A stretch of DNA of 64,000 nt, taken from positions 83,592-147,591 of the forward strand of contig JAIPIU010000002.1 in assembly GCA_021734475.1 (NCBI GenBank), in the 5' to 3' direction. Position numbers and translations under genes: made by a program. Below the pieces are notes generated by a model, which had not been told where the DNA came from, searched no databases, and saw only the letters and a list, made by a program, of their open reading frames with translations. This DNA comes from Candidatus Altimarinota bacterium (GTDB lineage Bacteria > Patescibacteriota > Gracilibacteria > Absconditabacterales > Absconditicoccaceae). This document shows, piece by piece, positions 27,524 to 61,909 of the stretch. Numbering within the stretch: the first letter of the stretch is position 1; every line of letters begins with the position of its first letter.

Positions 27524-27595
27524 AAGGGAGTGGTGTTAGTGGTAGCACGTCGGTCTCCGAAGCCGAAGGGATAGGTTCAATTCCTGTCTCCCTTG
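27524..27595 (+). tRNA. tRNA-Arg (anticodon CCG)
   Basis: Acceptor AAGGGAG pairs with CTCCCTT, D-stem GTGT/GCAC, anticodon stem TCGGT/GCCGA around CTCCGAA giving anticodon CCG, T-arm ATAGG/CCTGT around TTCAATT. Discriminator G; no encoded CCA, unlike tRNA-Gly. Reads CGG, a codon rare in these AT-rich genes. It sits inside a cluster of palindromic repeats. Confidence 0.85.
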
Positions 27596-27606
27596 AATTC
27601 ACAAAA

Positions 27607-27730
27607 GTCATTCCGGTCTCAGGCGTTGCAACCGGAATCTAAATCACTTCGTCATTCCGGTCTCAAGTGTTGCAACCGGAATCTATAAATAATACTAGAT
27701 TCCCTCTTCCAACAATAGTCCGGGAATGAC
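27607..27730. repeat. palindromic repeat cluster, ATTCCGG class
   Basis: Two direct copies of GTCATTCCGGTCTCA...GTTGCAACCGGAATCT (27607-27640 and 27651-27684), then a diverged unit from AGATTCC to CCGGGAATGAC (27698-27730). Each copy is a hairpin with CATTCCGG/CCGGAATC arms. Tandem and opposed arrangement resembles REP/BIME organisation. Confidence 0.75.
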
Positions 27731-33248: not shown

Positions 33249-33334
33249 GTCATTCCGGCGCTAAGAGTTGCAGCCGGAATCTATAGTTTAATAAATAGTA
33301 GATTCCCTATTCCAAAACTTAATCCGGGAATGAC
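33249..33334. repeat. palindromic repeat pair, ATTCCGG class
   Basis: GTCATTCCGGCGC...GCAGCCGGAATCT is followed after ~20 bp by GATTCCC...AATCCGGGAATGAC. Same two-unit arrangement as at 27651-27730. The 348 bp from here to the next ATG hold no gene; they form the probable promoter and leader of the S-layer-like gene, including a TTTTGTC/GACAAAG stem near 33630. Confidence 0.7.
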
Positions 33335-33682: not shown

Positions 33683-36600
33683 ATGAACATTAAAAAATTA
33701 TTCGCAAGTGTAACATCAGTGTTGATGCTTGCTACATTGCTTCCTGTTGCTACATTCGGAGCTTCTTACAGCGACGAATTAGAAGGAGCTTATGATTATG
33801 CCTATGAAAATGGTATAACTACAATGAGTTCAATAGACAACGCTAATATGTATGGTTCTTTGACTAGAATCGCATTAGCAAAAATGATCGCTAACTACGC
33901 TATGGACGTATTAAATCTAGAGCCAGATACAGATATGGATTGTTCTTTTCCAGACGTTTCTGCTAGCTTAGATGCTCAGTATGATGATTGAGTTACAAAT
34001 GCTTGTCAACTAGGTCTTATGGGAGTTGGTATTACTAACTTCAACCCATATGGTATAGTTACTAGAGCAGAATTTGGTACAGTATTGTCTAGAGCTTTAC
34101 GAGGAGATATGTATGATGGAGCTACTCCATACTATGCAGATCACTTAGAAGCTTTGGAAGATGCAGATATCATGACAAATATTTCTAATCCTTCTGCTAC
34201 AGAAGTTAGAGGATATGTAATGTTGATGATGCAAAGAGCTGAAGAGGACGCAACTCCTGCAGCATGTTTGGATCCTATGGTTCAAATAGCTTGTGCTCTT
34301 AATTCAGAAGACGACGCATGTCCAGTTGAATGTAGAGATATAGAAGATGATGAAGATCTTCCTGAATCAGATTGAACATTAAGTTTCGATTTGAATAACA
34401 ACACTCCAGATGCTGCTAGTATAGCTCAAAACGCTCAAGCAGTTGAATTCTTGACTTTTGATGTTGAAGCTACAGATGAAGATGTTCACTTATCTTCAAT
34501 CACAATAGAAAGACAAGGTTTGTGAGATAGAACAGATTTCGACAAGGTTTGGTTAACAAAAGGTGATGTTATTGTTACAACAGACAAAACTATCAATTCT
34601 GATGATCAAGCTACTCTTACATTGGATATAGATGTAAAAGCTGGTTCTACTGAAACATTTACTGTTGTTGCTTCTATGAATAATTTTGCAAACAAAATTA
34701 ATAGTTTCGCTGTAGTAGATGTAGAAGCTAATACAAACGATATTGATGGATTACCTGTAGAATGAGAATCTATGACAACTGTTGCATATACTGTTGCTCA
34801 AGTAACAGCTACTATAAAAGGTGCTGATACTACAATAGATGTATGAGCAGATTGAGTTATCTTGTGAGAATTTAAATTACAAGAAACTACAACTGCAACA
34901 AGAGATGTAGAAATAAAATCTATTAGATTTAAAAACGTTGGAAATGCAAAAATGGCAGATGTTGATAATTTAGAACTATATGCAGATGGATCTTTGGTAG
35001 ATCTAGATGAAGTAGTTGTAGATTGAGATTATGTTACATTTGTATTTGATAACAATTTCATGATAGAAGATGGAAAATCAAATAACTTCTCTATTAAATG
35101 AGATATTTTGGCTGGTGATAACGCAGCTAAATACCAATTCCAATTAAAGAATAAGTTTGACTTATACGCATTGGAAGAAGGAACAAATATGTGAGCTTCA
35201 GTTGATGGTGCTCCATTGCCTCTTAAAACTTACACTTTGAATGCTGGAAAAATCACATTATCAGTAGATAATGAAAATAATCCTTCATCTGAAGAATATG
35301 TAAAAGAAACAGACGATGTATTGTTGTTTGCTGTAAAAGTAGATACAGACCAAGATATCAATGTTGATAAAGTTAGAGTATTTATAGACGATGGTACAAA
35401 AGATCTTACAGAAGCTAATTTTGAATCATATTTCCAAAATTTTGCTCTATACAGAGGTAATAGATTGATAGACACTACAGATAATGTTGTAGTTAATAAT
35501 GTGGCTGCTACTCCTGTAGGAGACGATGGTTTGGATTACTTAGAATTTGATATGTGATGAACATTATCAGATAATGATGTATTGTATGTTTACGTAGATG
35601 TTAAATCTACAGCTGCTGACAATACAGCACTAAAATTAAAAGTTGATAATGCAACTACAACATCAGCTTGATATTCATCTACTCTTCAAGATGTAGAATA
35701 TATATCAAATGGTGATGCTGTTGCTACAGCTAAATTTGCTGGTACAGCTACTTCAAACACAATGACAGTAGTACCTGCTTCAAATGGTGCTTCTATCGTT
35801 AGAAATGACGGTTACGATGCTAGTACAACATTCCTAGCTGGTGAACAAGCTGCAGAACTTATGAAGTTCACAGTAAATGCTGGTAATAGTTCTTCTCTTG
35901 AAATTAAAAGATTGAATTTTGACTTAGATGTTACAAGTTCTCTTTTCTCAAACTATACAAACGTTAAAGTTTTGATAGATGGTGATCAAGAAGGTAACAC
36001 AGAAGATTTTGCTGCTACAACATCTCCAGATGGAACAGTAACAGTAGAAGATATCAATTATGTTATAGCTAAAAATGGTCAAGTACAAGTTACTCTAGTT
36101 TCTGATATTGCTTCTTCAACTGCTGCTGAAGCTACAACACAAATAGATGTAACATTAGATGTTTCTGATTCATTATTCTATGATGTAAATTGAAATGAAG
36201 TTACAGCATGATTAGTAGATGTTGCTTCAGCTAATTTCGTAGTTGCTACATCTGCTTCATTAACTGTTGCAAAAGATGGAAACTCTCCTGACTCTGCTAT
36301 AGTTATAGCTTGAACAAATCAAGTAGAAGTTGCTAAATATAAATTCACTTCATCAAATGGTGATATAAAAGTAAAAGACTTATACTTCAGAAATGTTAAT
36401 GCTGCTGCTGATGATGCTAGAGTATCATCTTATGAATTGGTAGTTAATGATGAAGTAATAGATTCTAGAGCTCCATCAAGCAATAACTTCCACTTCAATT
36501 TAGGTACAACAAATGGTTTTGAAGTAGAAAAAGATGGTAATATAGTAGTTACAATTAGAGCTAACTTAAACTCTATTACAGCTGATTCTCAAACAAACAA

Positions 36601-37294
36601 GGGTATAACTCTTGAATTGACTGATGTAAAAGCTGATACTGTTGCTACATCTACAGCTTTGACTACAGTAAATGGAGGAACTGCTATAGATAATGGTGAT
36701 CACTATACTACATCTGCTTTGGCTGCTTTGAATATTCAATCAGACGCTATGATGGTTAGAAAAACTCAACCTACAGTAGCTACTGTTGATCTATGAACAG
36801 CTAAATTGACTAACGGTGAACAAACTATATACAAATTTACTGTAACAGCTGATTCTGCAGAAGATGTAGAAATTGCTGAAATAGATTTTGATGTAACATT
36901 ATGAGATGCAGACGGTGGTTGAGAAATTGCTGCTCCATTCGCTTCTCACAAGTTATTTATTAACTGAACAGATAAAACAGCTGATGGTGCATTTGCTGCA
37001 CTTGATGTATTTACATTTACATCATGAAAAGATGTTATTATATCTGCTGGTACATCAAAAACATTTGAACTAAAAGCTACATTAGCTTGAGTAGAAACAG
37101 ATGATTATATAACTACAAAAATTATTGAAGATGCTACTGCATCAGCGTGAACATACGCTACAGTTACAGCTGCTTCTGATAATTTTGTATGGACTGATAA
37201 TGCTGGTTCTCCACACTCAAGAACTACAACTGATTGGTTCAATGGTTACAAAGTAAATGGATTAGATACTATAGCTACTACTCTTGAAAAATAG
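33683..37294 (+). CDS. S-layer-like surface protein with N-terminal SLH-like module (1,203 aa)
   Basis: Signal peptide (residues 1-27, ending VATFGA). An SLH-like module spans about residues 28-200 (AYENGITTMSS ... FNPYGIVTRAEFGTVLSRAL ... VRGYVMLMMQRAE). About 1,000 residues of Ala/Thr/Val/Asp-rich repeating beta-type sequence follow with almost no Cys. Length, composition and signal peptide fit a major S-layer or surface protein. Glycine use differs from neighbours: I count about 23 TGA codons, clearly fewer than GGT/GGA, and codons such as GCT, ACA and GTA dominate, as in a highly expressed gene. A strong terminator follows. Confidence 0.8.
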
Positions 37295-39262: not shown

Positions 39263-39294
39263 CCACCCGGGTGTCTTTTTCTGCACCCGGGTGG
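39263..39294. repeat. REP pair, CCCGGG class, just upstream of the transposase
   Basis: CCACCCGGGTG and CACCCGGGTGG face each other across a T-rich 10-bp spacer. It ends 26 bp before the transposase start, as expected for REP/RAYT modules. Confidence 0.72.
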
Positions 39295-39320
39295 GATATA
39301 AGATTTTATTTTTCACTCGG

Positions 39321-39821
39321 ATGCAAATGCCTAAAAGATTAGAATTTGAAGAAAATGCATATTATCATGTTTATAATAGATGATTAAATAAACAAATACT
39401 ATTTCATAATAATAAAGACTTTCAGAGATTTTTACTATATTTGGATATTTATAAAAATAAGTGTAAAAAAGAATTATGAATTATTTCTTATTGTATATTA
39501 CCCAACCATTTTCATTTCGTGCTACTTAATAAATCACAATCTCATAAAATATCTTATTTTATCTGAAATATCTGCGCATCATATACGAGGTATTATAAAG
39601 CTAAATATTGAGCTGATAAATGAGTATTATATTTTGAATCTAGATTCAAAGCCAAATTAATTGACAACGATGAGTACCTACAACAATGCATTCAATATGT
39701 CGAATATAACGCACTCAAACATAAATTAGTTGAGAAGTGAGCTGATCGGATATTTAGATCAGATTCTGGTTCAAAATTAGGATCGGAGATATTAGATTTA
39801 GATTGGGAGTTTGAGTTTTAG
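39321..39821 (+). CDS. REP-associated tyrosine transposase (RAYT, Y1 HUH type)
   Basis: 166 aa (an ATG at 39327 is also possible). Features of the IS200/RAYT family: YHVYNRGLNKQILF near the start, the HUH motif in LPNHFHFVLL (His63, His65), and a C-terminal helix CIQYVEYNALKH with the probable nucleophile Tyr126. RAYT enzymes cut and rejoin single-stranded REP hairpins. CCCGGG-class REPs lie on both sides, and another copy stands at 32.6 kb. It uses both TGA and GGN for Gly, so it is adapted to the host code rather than newly arrived. Confidence 0.88.
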
Positions 39822-40763: not shown

Positions 40764-40978
40764 GTCATCTCGAGCAGAGTCGAGAGATCCCTTAAATCGA
40801 TTTCTTCGTTCTGCTCAGAATGACGGTTAATATTCTCAATAACAGTGATCTGGTCATTGCGATCCGCCTTGGCGGGAAAGCAATCTTAAATAAACGAAAA
40901 AAAAAGATTGCCGCGTCGTCGTTTCACTTCTCCTCGCAATGACAGTTCTGTCATTTTACTCCTTGCAATGACAGAGAA
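40764..40978. repeat. palindromic repeats, GTCATTGCGA and TCGAGCAGAG classes
   Basis: Fills the 313-bp gap before lemA. 40764-40824 runs from GTCATCTCGAGCAGAG to CTGCTCAGAATGAC. 40853-40943 runs from GTCATTGCGATCCGCC to CTCCTCGCAATGAC, with a matching GAAAGCAATCTT/AAGATTGCCGCG interior. A shorter unit ends at 40973. Repeats of this appearance occur in many unrelated bacteria. Confidence 0.65.
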
Positions 40979-41613: not shown

Positions 41614-41887
41614 GTCATTCCGGTCTCATTGTTGCAACCGGAATCTAAATCACTGTGTCATTCCGGCCTCAAATGTTGCAGCCGGAATCTATAGTTTAAT
41701 AAATACTACCACATAGTCTGACACTCAGAATAACGATTACCTAGTCATTGCGAGCGTATGCGAAGCAATCTTAAATAAACAAAAAAAAGATTGCCGCGTC
41801 GTCGTTTTACTTCTCCTCGCAATGACAGAAAAAAAAAGATTCCCTCTTCCAACCCAACACCATGTAATGGTGTAGTATCGCAATGAC
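41614..41887. repeat. palindromic repeat cluster between lemA and htpX
   Basis: Two ATTCCGG-class copies (41614-41646 and 41657-41690), one GTCATTGCGAGC/CTCGCAATGAC unit (41744-41826) and a GATTCCC...CGCAATGAC unit holding a CACCAT/ATGGTG hairpin (to 41887). No gene in the 322 bp. Confidence 0.7.
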
Positions 41888-44076: not shown

Positions 44077-44168
44077 GTCATTCCGGTCTCAATGACGAAG
44101 TCTGCAGCCGGAATCTATGTCTTTCAATTAATTAAGATTCCGGCCGCAAATAATAAAGCCGGAATGAC
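44077..44168. repeat. palindromic repeat pair, ATTCCGG class
   Basis: GTCATTCCGGTCTCA...GCAGCCGGAATCT, then GATTCCGGCCGCAA...GCCGGAATGAC in opposite orientation. The second half is the same module that lies in frame inside uvrC. The remaining gap to 44360 is AT-rich. Confidence 0.75.
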
Positions 44169-51653: not shown

Positions 51654-53426
51654 TTATTTAAATTCATTTTTCATCTGATTTTTTCTATAAGCATTTGCAA
51701 ATCTATGTGCTTCATCACGAGCTTTTACAATGATTTTGTCTGATTGATCATAGATTAAATCAATGCTTTTTATTTTCTTATCTTTATCAAAATAGTATAT
51801 TTTTTCTCCGATTTTTCAATTTTGATTATTTTGTCATATTCTACTCTTTTTTCTAGCTTCTCCTTTTCAAATTGAAATAAAATCAATCTGATCCAATATA
51901 TTTCTCCATTTACTATTTTCTTCTATTATTTTTTTCATTATTCATAGTTGTCATTTACCTCAATCTATAATAAACAAATTTGGTAAAAAATCTTTATTTT
52001 TCAGTCTACGAATTATTACTTCTTTTAATGATTCATAATCGTTTATCATTTGTCATTCCGGCGATGTTTTTTTGCGGCCGGAATCTATTTTTTTATTTTT
52101 AGATACTATTTTTTCTTTTGCATAATTCATGGTGATTTTATATTTTCTATAATATTTCTTTTCCAATAGTCATCATATTAGGCATGAAAGTCATCAACTC
52201 GTCCATCATCATGATAAGTGAGATATATCTATACATTCGATATGATAAGGAAAATTATTCAATTTATATCTTTCTTTTAAATTCTGCAAAAGTTCATTGT
52301 TCAAATTATCTCATTCAAAAGACGTAGATATGATATAGGATTCAAAAAATCATTCAATCAATGTGTTTATATCTTTTTGATCAGATTTGGATAATTTTTT
52401 TATAGATTTACTAATTCAGATAATTTCTTGGGTATCGACAAATAAATCTTTATCCAAAATAAATTCTCCACAGTCTTTTGTTATACTAGCCACTATACTT
52501 GCAATATCTGATTCATCTTGATGGAATTTATGACGAACAATATCGATCAATTTTCATTCATAGAAATACAATAGGACGTAAACAAACCACTTTCACATTT
52601 TTTTTATTTGGAAAACATATCAAGAAGTTTGTTTTTTTAATACTACTGTCTGAGCTTCACTCAAATTTTCTATCTGTAGATAAATATCTCTAAGTTTAGC
52701 TGCTCGTTCAAAATTTTCCATCTGGACAGAATTGTCTATTTGTTTCAATATCTCTTTTTGTATGGGTTTGATATCTCCACGAAAAAAAGATGTAATATAA
52801 TTGATAATTTTTTTATAATCATCTATTATTAGTCATTCCGGCGAGTTTTTTTTGCGGCCGGAATCTTTTTTATTATTTTTAGAGATTGCTTCATTCTTCG
52901 CAATGACAGGTAAATTACACCGACCTTTACAAAGTCAAAAATAGAAATCTGAACATATTTTTCCTTTTTTAAATTCTGATATTTTACATCATCTATATTG
53001 CAAAACTTGTCTAAGATATTGTAAAAATTTTTTCAAATTTATTGTATTGTGTTTGGGTCATATATATGTAGATCCATCATTTAATCTTTTTCTAGTAATG
53101 AAAATCTGAGGAAACTCTTCATTTGTTATTTTTATATAGGCATAACTATTTGATCATTTGAGCATATTATTGTAATAGGGTTTATGTTTTTTTATTAGAT
53201 TATCTTCCAAATATAGAGCCTCACTCTCATTTTTAACCAGTACAAAATCTACACAGTTAGCTTTTTCCAACATCTCTTGTTTCCATATAGATCATGGAGA
53301 AAAATATTGAGCAACCCTCTTTTTTAGATCTTTGGCTTTTCCTATATACAAAATATCTCAAGTTTTATCTTTGAAAAAATAAACTCAAGCCTTATCTGGT
53401 ATTTTTGATATATTTTTAATATCCAT
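51654..53426 (-). CDS. uvrC: excinuclease ABC subunit C with two repeat-derived insertions
   Basis: 590 aa. GIY-YIG domain (KAGVYFFKDKTGDILYIGKA) at residues 10-90, Cys cluster CSDFYFGLCKGRC, a UVR motif (VQMENFERAAKLRDIY), and the RNase H-like domain with IECIDISHLSGG and IDGGKGQLG. It ends just after RDEAHRFANAYRK, so the C-terminal helix-hairpin-helix pair normally present in UvrC is missing. Residues about 174-198 and 447-459 are encoded by palindromic repeats read in frame (DSGRKKNSPEG and DSGRKKTSPEG). Both sit at loop positions between domains. UvrC makes both incisions in nucleotide-excision repair. Confidence 0.93.
52052..52086. repeat. ATTCCGG-class palindromic repeat inside uvrC
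   Basis: GTCATTCCGGCGATG...GCGGCCGGAATCT, a complete hairpin unit. On the coding (minus) strand it reads D-S-G-R-K-K-T-S-P-E-G; the last Gly is TGA. Confidence 0.8.
52832..52907. repeat. two palindromic repeat units inside uvrC
   Basis: 52832-52866 is an ATTCCGG-class unit, read D-S-G-R-K-K-N-S-P-E-G on the coding strand. 52884-52907 is a GATTGCTTC...GAAGCAATC-type unit ending CGCAATGAC, read PVIAKNEAIS. Both are in frame. Confidence 0.78.
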
Positions 53427-59794: not shown

Positions 59795-61909
59795 ATGAAA
59801 AATTTGATTACAAAAATCCTGTTTCTTGTTTTCGCGATGATTACAACTATCCAGGTCAGTGCTGGTGTCTTCAATGATACTATCTGTTCAGGTTCTTCGA
59901 TTACAATCGGTAATGTATATCCTACGGCTACTTTGTACCAATGGAATACTACACCGCCTCAGTACACAGCAACAATTACAGTTAATCCAGTTGTTAGTAC
60001 TACTTACATTGTAAATGTATTCTCTGGAACTACATGGCTTGTAGCTGACACATTCAATGTTATTACAAACCCATTACCTACTGGTACGATTACACCTCCT
60101 CAATCTATCTGCGCTGGATCAAGTGCAACTTTAACTGCGACTGGTGGAGTAACTTATCTTTGGTCGCCAGGTGGAGCTACTACAGCTAGCATTACTGTTA
60201 GTCCAAGTGTTACTACAACTTATTCAGTAATAATTACTGGTACAAATGGTTGTTCTATTACTTTGAGTTCAGTAGTCACTGTCAATCCTTTACCGACATT
60301 TACTAGTATTGGATCCAATTCGCCCTTGTGTGAAGGTTCTACTTTGAATCTCTATGCAACAGCGAATACAGGATCAACTTATGATTGGACAGGCCCAAAT
60401 AGTTTCACTTCGAATCTACAAAATCCTTCCATTTCAAACGTTACTATACTAAATGCAGGCAATTACACAGTTACAGCTACTTTGAACGGATGCACAGCTT
60501 CTACAAGTACAGGTGTAGTTATCAATACTCCACCCACACTTACAGTAAGCGGTAGTTCATCAGTTTGCTCGGGTTCAACTATTTACCTTTTTGCAAATGG
60601 ATCTAGCGGATCAACTTATTCTTGGACAGGACCAAATGGTTTCAGTTCAAGTTTACAAAATCCCATAATATCCAATGCAAGTACTGTAAATTCTGGTTGG
60701 TACGTAGCGACAGCAACTTTGAATACTTGTTCTTCACAGGATAGTATCTTGGTTACGGTCAATACAGCTCCAGTAGTTAGTATTACAGGTAATCTGAATA
60801 TTTGTTCAGGTTCTAGTACAACACTAACAGCAACAGGAGGCGGAACTTATCTATGGTCTACTAGTGTTACTACTTCAAGTATTACAGTTAGTCCAAGTGT
60901 TACTACTACTTATTGGGTTACAGTTACTGGTACAAATGGTTGTTCTACAACAGCTTATGCTACAGTATTTGTAAATTCAGGACCAACTATTAGTTTTTCC
61001 CCAGCAAATCCTCAGGTTTGTGAAGGTGAAAATATAGTAGTGACAGCTATGGGTGCTAATACCTATTCCTGGTCAAACGGTACTAATGGATCATCTATCA
61101 GTGTCAATCCAACCACCACAACTACTTACACAGTTACTGGTACCAGTTCTCAGGGTTGCACAACCACAGCTTCAGTTACCATTTTGGTTGACCCCAAACC
61201 TATAGTAAGTTTAAATCTTCCACAGAGTCAGATTTGCTTAGACGCAAATCCAATTACTCTCAATGGAGGATCTCCTGTAGGAGGATCTTATTATGGTAGC
61301 GGAATATTTGGTGGAATGTTTTATCCATCAACAGTAGGTGTTGGTACTTACACAATATCTTATGAATATACCAATTCATATGGTTGTACATCTACAGCTA
61401 CAACATTACTAACAGTCAATCCACTGCCTACAGTAATATTCAATTCCATTTACCCCAATCCTGTAAATATCAATGCCGCAGCTTTCCAGCTCAATACTGG
61501 AATTCCATTGGGAGGTATTTATTCGGGACCTGGAGTAGTCAACGGTTGGTTTTATCCATCCGTTGCTGGAGTTGGTATTCATACGATTACCTATACATAC
61601 ATAGACTTTATGTCTTGTGCCAATACGGTGATGCAGACTATTACGGTCGCAGGAAACGTTGGGATCGAAGAGCAATCTTCAAAATCGATCAGAATCTACC
61701 CCAACCCTGTAAACAACTTTCTAAATGTAGAGCTGGAAGAAATTCCTAATCTTGTTCAGATAGTTGACCTGACTGGTCATGTATTACTGAGTCAAAAAGT
61801 TGATTCCGAAAATTTCAAGATAGATGTTTCGTATTTATCTAGGGGAATTTACTTTATCCACTTCAATTTTGAAGATGGATATAGTACAAGCACAAAGTTT
61901 ATTAAGTAA
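59795..61909 (+). CDS. secreted Ig/PKD-like repeat adhesin with T9SS C-terminal sorting signal (704 aa)
   Basis: Signal peptide (residues 1-23, ending QVSAG). About seven repeats of ~80 residues follow with the pattern ICSGSSTTLTATGG ... YLWS ... SITVSPSVTTTYWVTVTGT, the Bacteroidota PKD/Ig-like repeat of gliding and adhesion proteins. The last ~80 residues hold SIRIYPNPVNNFLNVELEE and SRGIYFIHFNFEDG, a type A T9SS sorting domain. No in-frame TGA; all Gly are GGN, mostly GGT/GGA. Function probably surface adhesion in the donor. Without a T9SS the tail would not be processed here. Confidence 0.9.
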   Translation: MKNLITKILFLVFAMITTIQVSAGVFNDTICSGSSITIGNVYPTATLYQWNTTPPQYTATITVNPVVSTTYIVNVFSGTTWLVADTFNVITNPLPTGTITPPQSICAGSSATLTATGGVTYLWSPGGATTASITVSPSVTTTYSVIITGTNGCSITLSSVVTVNPLPTFTSIGSNSPLCEGSTLNLYATANTGSTYDWTGPNSFTSNLQNPSISNVTILNAGNYTVTATLNGCTASTSTGVVINTPPTLTVSGSSSVCSGSTIYLFANGSSGSTYSWTGPNGFSSSLQNPIISNASTVNSGWYVATATLNTCSSQDSILVTVNTAPVVSITGNLNICSGSSTTLTATGGGTYLWSTSVTTSSITVSPSVTTTYWVTVTGTNGCSTTAYATVFVNSGPTISFSPANPQVCEGENIVVTAMGANTYSWSNGTNGSSISVNPTTTTTYTVTGTSSQGCTTTASVTILVDPKPIVSLNLPQSQICLDANPITLNGGSPVGGSYYGSGIFGGMFYPSTVGVGTYTISYEYTNSYGCTSTATTLLTVNPLPTVIFNSIYPNPVNINAAAFQLNTGIPLGGIYSGPGVVNGWFYPSVAGVGIHTITYTYIDFMSCANTVMQTITVAGNVGIEEQSSKSIRIYPNPVNNFLNVELEEIPNLVQIVDLTGHVLLSQKVDSENFKIDVSYLSRGIYFIHFNFEDGYSTSTKFIK

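What the first reader, a model, noticed from the sequence alone, without database searches (positions are those of the whole stretch)
51654..53426. In-frame palindromic repeats encode peptide insertions in UvrC, readable only because UGA is glycine
Two ATTCCGG-class repeat units (52052-52086 and 52832-52866) that also occur between genes lie inside uvrC in the same orientation and frame. They encode nearly identical peptides DSGRKKTSPEG and DSGRKKNSPEG. The unit's terminal GGAATGAC places a TGA in this frame; under the standard code each copy would truncate UvrC. Both sit at domain junctions (after the Cys cluster, and before the KEVIIRRL segment), where extra residues may be tolerated. This resembles Rickettsia palindromic elements, a known class of in-frame protein-invading repeats, but in an alternative-code CPR lineage. 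Sequence identity and frame are seen; mobility is inference.
Basis: partly seen in the sequence, partly recalled or inferred. Interest (0 to 1): 0.88.

Follow-up and report, generated by a model that had tools for sequence, protein, structure and literature searches.

The report
Repeat-derived insertions in UvrC loops
Short hairpin-forming DNA repeats that normally sit between genes have repeatedly inserted, in frame, into loops of the DNA-repair protein UvrC and many other proteins of bacteria that read UGA as glycine; about half of these insertions could not be translated under the ordinary genetic code.

Summary
Two ATTCCGG palindromes lie in uvrC (minus strand, TGA=Gly) and encode DSGRKKTSPEG and DSGRKKNSPEG. 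The genome has 88 such units; reversed-pattern control 0. The true inserts are larger (about 25-30 aa). Site 1 is a two-unit composite (GTCATTGCG unit, 18-nt linker, ATTCCGG unit) built like the intergenic pairs.

UvrC from 41 genomes of the family: at site 2 most relatives, and T. maritima UvrC, lack the block. Other genera carry different inserts in the same loops, matching repeat families present in those same genomes. Site 1 carries at least four repeat families and site 2 at least three.

Beyond UvrC: of 344 sampled units from 12 genomes, 44 lie in 31 strong ORFs (ValS, PheT, LeuS, TrmD, TsaD, SecA, Tex...). 25 of 44 need UGA as sense (14.7 expected; p=0.0008; p=0.09 with one copy per gene). 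So UGA=Gly opens extra frames but is not a general requirement; ValS and PheT use a UGA-free frame.

It works like Rickettsia palindromic elements and intragenic REPs, a known kind, here in an alternative-code candidate phylum with repeated re-invasion of the same loops. Mobility is inferred, not seen.

The parts
51654..53426 (-). uvrC, 590 aa under table 25, 27 TGA(Gly) codons
52824..52916 (-). Site 1 insert: GTCATTGCG unit + 18-nt A/T-rich linker + ATTCCGG unit; NLPVIAKNEAISKNNKKDSGRKKNSPEGLII
   Evidence: relatives have 24-54 aa (a few longer) across this stretch with unrelated or other repeat-derived content
52884..52907 (-). Unit of the second repeat family, GTCATTGCGAAGAATGAAGCAATC, read VIAKNEAI; 50 exact-pattern copies in the genome
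52832..52866 (-). ATTCCGG unit, copy 1: GATTCCGGCCGCAAAAAAAACTCGCCGGAATGAC, DSGRKKNSPEG (TGA read as G)
52044..52133 (-). Site 2 insert in the RNase H domain loop: TMNYAKEKIVSKNKKIDSGRKKTSPEGQMI; first half looks like a decayed partner unit plus linker
52052..52086 (-). ATTCCGG unit, copy 2, DSGRKKTSPEG
27607..27685 (+). Two intergenic ATTCCGG units (27610-27638, 27654-27682) just after a tRNA (27524-27595)
33249..33283 (+). Intergenic ATTCCGG unit
41614..41691 (+). Two intergenic ATTCCGG units
44077..44168 (.). Outward-tagged pair of ATTCCGG units just upstream of the dnaJ-like start
40853..40945 (.). Intergenic opposed pair of GTCATTGCG units with an A/T-rich linker (same layout as UvrC site 1)
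41744..41828 (.). Second intergenic opposed pair of GTCATTGCG units

Best explanation
The two blocks are in-frame insertions of REP-like palindromic elements: an 8-9 bp stem, one end tagged (N)GTC, often as opposed pairs about 20 nt apart. In this UGA=Gly family of Gracilibacteria such elements spread between genes and sometimes land in genes. Copies survive where the length keeps the frame, the frame is open (UGA read as Gly adds open frames), and the encoded peptide sits in a flexible surface loop. UvrC has four such loops, and different lineages have filled them with repeat families present in their own genomes. The peptide is translated and tolerated rather than selected for function. Shown: repeat identity, in-frame placement, presence/absence, loop location in a model, frame bias. 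Inferred: transposition as the mechanism, translation, neutrality.
For: 88 perfect units in the genome, 0 in control; 82/88 carry xGTC at one end, stems of 8-9 bp, 14 of 18 close pairs have tags outward, and UvrC site 1 has this layout. The site-2 stretch spans 23-31 aa in most relatives and 45-56 in G000, G001, G041, G047, G050. Match to own-genome repeats: G041 and G047 site-2 sequence belongs to a repeat found in 5 of 49 genomes, all one genus; the G045 site-1 unit has 23 hits in G045; the G042 site-1 insert is a full member of the CCTCCTTT family; the G011 site-3 insert is one of 8 copies there; the G001 site-1 unit is 90% identical to another copy 4 kb away. Hairpin z-scores -6.8 (G001 site 2), -6.5 (G015 site 1), -2.2 and -2.5 (own). 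AlphaFold segments with pLDDT<50 include 174-187, 332-341, 436-458, 531-534, i.e. sites 1, 3, 2, 4. Frame bias p=1.6e-4, 0.0008 for UGA-needing placements. Known protein families hit; ValS insert absent from G059 ValS; TrmD, PheT, TsaD inserts unaligned or gapped against PDB homologues.
Against: No polymorphic empty/filled pair within one species, so movement itself is not seen. Neither Y1 transposase gene of the genome is flanked by these repeats. Frame-bias significance drops to p=0.09 with one copy per gene. The two UvrC copies could partly reflect intragenic duplication, although the site-2 unit is about as close to an intergenic copy (L048:9632-9702) as to site 1. No proteomics. Genes were called by ORF length plus codon score, not by transcripts. 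Own uvrC hairpin z-scores are modest, and the G041 site-2 insert is not a significant hairpin (z -0.8).
Confidence: 0.86

Rival explanations
1. One ancestral in-frame insertion in the genus, then duplicated or gene-converted inside uvrC; the different content in sister species comes from later conversion by intergenic repeats, not fresh insertions.
For: G000 and G001 share the GTCATTGCG unit at site 1; the two G000 inserts are ~80% alike including linker.
Against: Site 2 of G000 and G001 holds different families; genus g14 has further families at the same sites; other genes in the same genome carry their own inserts.
Confidence: 0.25
2. The peptides are functional additions kept by selection, for example to alter repair activity, as speculated for REP-decorated Uvr/Rec proteins (PMC3733652).
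For: Same loops hit repeatedly; repair proteins are also hit in standard-code bacteria.
Against: Inserts differ in sequence and length between lineages, appear decayed in some (G000 site 2, G040 site 1), are absent in most relatives, and hit unrelated proteins.
Confidence: 0.07
3. The segments are ordinary variable linkers and the match to the repeat is chance.
For: Site 1 varies naturally in length in the family.
Against: A 35-nt unit matching an 88-copy family twice in one gene; 0 perfect palindromes in 100 window shuffles.
Confidence: 0.01
4. The RNA hairpin is bypassed or removed, so the peptide is not made (like hop elements of some yeast mitochondria; recalled, not tested).
For: Several inserts are strong hairpins.
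Against: Inserts keep the frame and lack TAA/TAG, and frame use is biased, as expected only if translated.
Confidence: 0.03

Closest known systems
CGTC-tagged REPs, including intragenic copies (Di Nocera et al. 2013, PMC3733652)
   Same: Palindrome with 8-9 bp stem, one GTC-tagged end, frequent opposed pairs, mostly intergenic, some in frame inside genes, notably Uvr and Rec repair genes; R. conorii uvrB has two; no linked transposase.
   Different: Loop 11-28 nt here against 4-5; strict CGTC tag in only 14 of 88; alternative-code lineage; UGA frame used; different families re-enter the same protein loop in different genera (the paper reports about the same site only for Xanthomonas recB).
Rickettsia palindromic elements (Ogata 2000, 2002; as summarised in PMC10969869)
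   Same: Hairpin-forming repeats inserted in frame in unrelated genes, also between genes, several families per genome, conserved peptide.
   Different: Units shorter (~35 nt, pairs ~75-90 nt against ~150 bp); different lineage and genetic code; no sequence relation tested.
REP/RAYT systems
   Same: Small palindromes dispersed through a genome; Y1 transposase genes present.
   Different: The Y1 gene in the window is flanked by CACCCGGGTG palindromes, not by these repeats.

Membership tests
CGTC-tagged REP (PMC3733652) | CGTC tetranucleotide at one end | tested here: not met
   14/88 CGTC, but 82/88 xGTC: related, not strict members
CGTC-tagged REP (PMC3733652) | stem 8-9 bp | tested here: met
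   86 of 88 have 8 or 9 bp
CGTC-tagged REP (PMC3733652) | loop 4-5 nt | tested here: not met
   loops 11-28 nt
CGTC-tagged REP (PMC3733652) | opposed (dimer) arrangement common | tested here: met
   14 of 18 close pairs opposed with tags outward, mostly 15-24 nt apart
CGTC-tagged REP (PMC3733652) | no association with transposase genes | tested here: met
Rickettsia palindromic element | in-frame insertion in unrelated genes, absent from homologues | tested here: met
Rickettsia palindromic element | ~150-bp element of an RPE sequence family in Rickettsia | tested here: inconclusive
   unit ~35 nt, pairs ~75-90 nt, not a Rickettsia genome; RPE sequences were not compared
Rickettsia palindromic element | transcribed hairpin | tested here: inconclusive
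   hairpins predicted, z -0.8 to -6.8; no expression data
RAYT-mobilised REP | repeats flank the cognate Y1 transposase | tested here: not met

The most novel reading that the evidence does not exclude
Reassigning UGA from stop to glycine has made genes of this lineage markedly more open to protein-invading palindromes: the frame ending ..GAA-UGA (DSSLRSEG, DSGRKKNSPEG) is closed in standard-code bacteria but is the most used one here, so the genetic code itself shapes how selfish DNA enters proteins, with UvrC loops as recurrent landing sites.
Probability: 0.35. Interest if true: 0.8.

Novelty: new variant of a known kind. Interest (0 to 1): 0.63.

Why it matters
In-gene palindromic repeats are known from Rickettsia and some REP-rich bacteria; I found no report for candidate-phyla bacteria or for a recoded lineage (literature searches). 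Here several unrelated repeat families enter the same loops of the same conserved proteins in different genera. That makes two questions testable: whether protein loops are general sinks for small mobile DNA, and whether a stop-codon reassignment widens that sink. It also warns annotators that such peptide blocks are genuine parts of proteins in this group.

Tried and rejected
Chance similarity: rejected. Transposase linkage: the Y1 gene at 39291-39821 is flanked by a different palindrome and the second Y1 gene has none of these repeats nearby. Control in 16 genomes of other families of the class, whose UvrC mostly lacks TGA: 26 units found in four of them, none convincingly inside a gene, against 26 of 88 in G022; suggestive but few genomes and confounded by lineage. 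The genome-contig scan gave mostly other phyla; only L088 named the group (Candidatus Gracilibacteria). Rfam: only tRNAs in the window.

Full report
OBSERVATION. uvrC lies on the minus strand at 51654-53426 and reads as 590 aa only with TGA=Gly (27 TGA). Pfam finds GIY-YIG and the UvrC RNase H domain. The two ATTCCGG units are at the stated places, in the same orientation and frame, and encode DSGRKKTSPEG and DSGRKKNSPEG. The window has 9 perfect palindromes where shuffles give none; the 1.17-Mb genome has 88, the reversed control none. The finding is real, but the inserts are longer than 11 residues.

ANATOMY. At site 1 the coding strand reads GTCATTGCGAAGAATGAAGCAATC - 18 nt A/T-rich - GATTCCGG..CCGGAATGAC, that is a unit of a second repeat family (50 exact-pattern copies in the genome) paired with an ATTCCGG unit. 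Intergenic ATTCCGG units carry xGTC at one end (82/88), have 8-9 bp stems, and 14 of 18 close pairs are opposed with tags outward, mostly 15-24 nt apart. The UvrC insert thus has the layout of an intergenic pair. Site 2 keeps one clear unit and what looks like a decayed partner. The unit at site 2 is about as close to an intergenic copy (L048:9632-9702) as to site 1, so intragenic duplication is not required, though not excluded.

PRESENCE AND ABSENCE. UvrC was collected from 41 genomes of the family. At site 2 the stretch YRxYKI..RRF spans 23-31 residues in most and 45-56 in G000, G001, G041, G047 and G050. T. maritima UvrC has about one residue where ours has 26, which also shows that site 2 is a loop within the RNase H domain. 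Sister species G001 carries at site 2 a different repeat pair (VILSEAKDP..LDSSSSIQND), an almost perfect 80-nt hairpin (z=-6.8).

RECURRENT INVASION. Other genera have other repeats in the same loops: G015 site 1 (hairpin z=-6.5), G042 site 1 (CCTCCTTT family), G045 site 1 (CTGCCTGCCGGTAGGCA family), G041 and G047 site 2 (AAGGGACAAGG family). Pattern counts over 49 genomes show that these families are present in the same genomes: the AAGGGACAAGG family in only 5 of 49, all one genus, with 27 and 6 hits in G041 and G047; CTGCCTGCCGG in 7 of 49, 23 hits in G045; GTCATTGCGA with 8 in G011, one being its UvrC site-3 insert; CCTCCTTT in 12 of 49. G015's insert resembles the GTCATTCTGAG family but no exact match to that pattern was found elsewhere in G015; G050's long inserts were not traced to a repeat. 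A hairpin scan of the CDSs also pointed to inserts near residues ~343 and ~533 in genus g14. The AlphaFold model of this UvrC (mean pLDDT 78) has pLDDT<50 at 174-187, 332-341, 436-458 and 531-534 among a few shorter stretches: the same four loops.

BEYOND UVRC. In the fetched stretches of 12 genomes, 344 distinct (N)GTC-type units were found; 44 lie in 31 ORFs of at least 200 aa with coding-like codon use on both sides. Pfam identifies ValS, PheT, TrmD, a pyruvyl transferase, TsaD, YgjP, Tex, U32 peptidase, LeuS, SecA, a DnaX-type clamp loader, a radical-SAM enzyme, MurB, MetG and an HsdR-like helicase; other repeat families hit PflB, RsmI-type and RsmE-type methylases. The G000 ValS block is a clean 17-residue insertion against G059 ValS; LeuS of G040 and G022 carry different repeats in the same loop. 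TrmD, PheT and TsaD inserts fall in unaligned or gapped stretches against PDB homologues.

FRAMES AND THE GENETIC CODE. Observed/expected over placements open under code 25: tail-first UGA frame 17/8.0, ND 10/6.3, MT 4/7.7; head-first GTC 10/7.6, TCA 3/6.8, CAT 0/7.6; chi-square p=1.6e-4. Randomising each copy over its own open placements, 25 of 44 need UGA as sense against 14.7 expected (p=0.0008); without G022 13/25 against 7.2 (p=0.009); with one copy per gene 14/31 against 10.1 (p=0.09). So UGA=Gly opens frames that are heavily used, but it is not needed by every copy, and UvrC would be unreadable under code 11 anyway. In other families of the class 26 units gave no convincing in-gene copy; a small, confounded control.

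COMPARISON. Intragenic REPs are known, including in excinuclease genes, with two in R. conorii uvrB (PMC3733652); Rickettsia palindromic elements are the classic case (PMC10969869). UGA=Gly recoding of this group is known (PMC4032931, found). The elements here work like these but fail two strict CGTC-REP features (tag, loop length). I rate it a new variant of a known kind.

LIMITS. No movement was observed, no protein data exist, the mechanism of spread is unknown (neither Y1 transposase gene is linked to these repeats), and the survey samples stretches around pattern hits rather than whole genomes.

Noticed in passing
window 39291-39821: Y1 (RAYT-like) transposase gene flanked by CACCCGGGTG palindromes (39149, 39264, 39284 and ~39830), a separate candidate REP/transposase pair.
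   Followed up: partly
window 44077-44168 and L048:2838-2916: ATTCCGG pairs sit directly upstream of the start codons of a dnaJ-like gene and an acetate-kinase-like gene; possible 5' UTR hairpins.
   Followed up: no
L086:3001-3040: Three tandem AATTGGG units lie inside what looks like an rsmH-like gene, probably another in-frame repeat type.
   Followed up: no
G059:C11:25630-26583: About 11 GTCATTCTGAG units in a tandem array with ~96-nt period.
   Followed up: no
window 59970-60947 and 36098-36680: Diverged internal repeats within long ORFs (TTSITVSPSVTTTY-type), likely surface proteins.
   Followed up: no
L269:1827-2645 (G022): A flavodoxin-like protein whose N-terminal 100 residues carry three GTCATTCTGAG-type units in a row.
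   Followed up: partly
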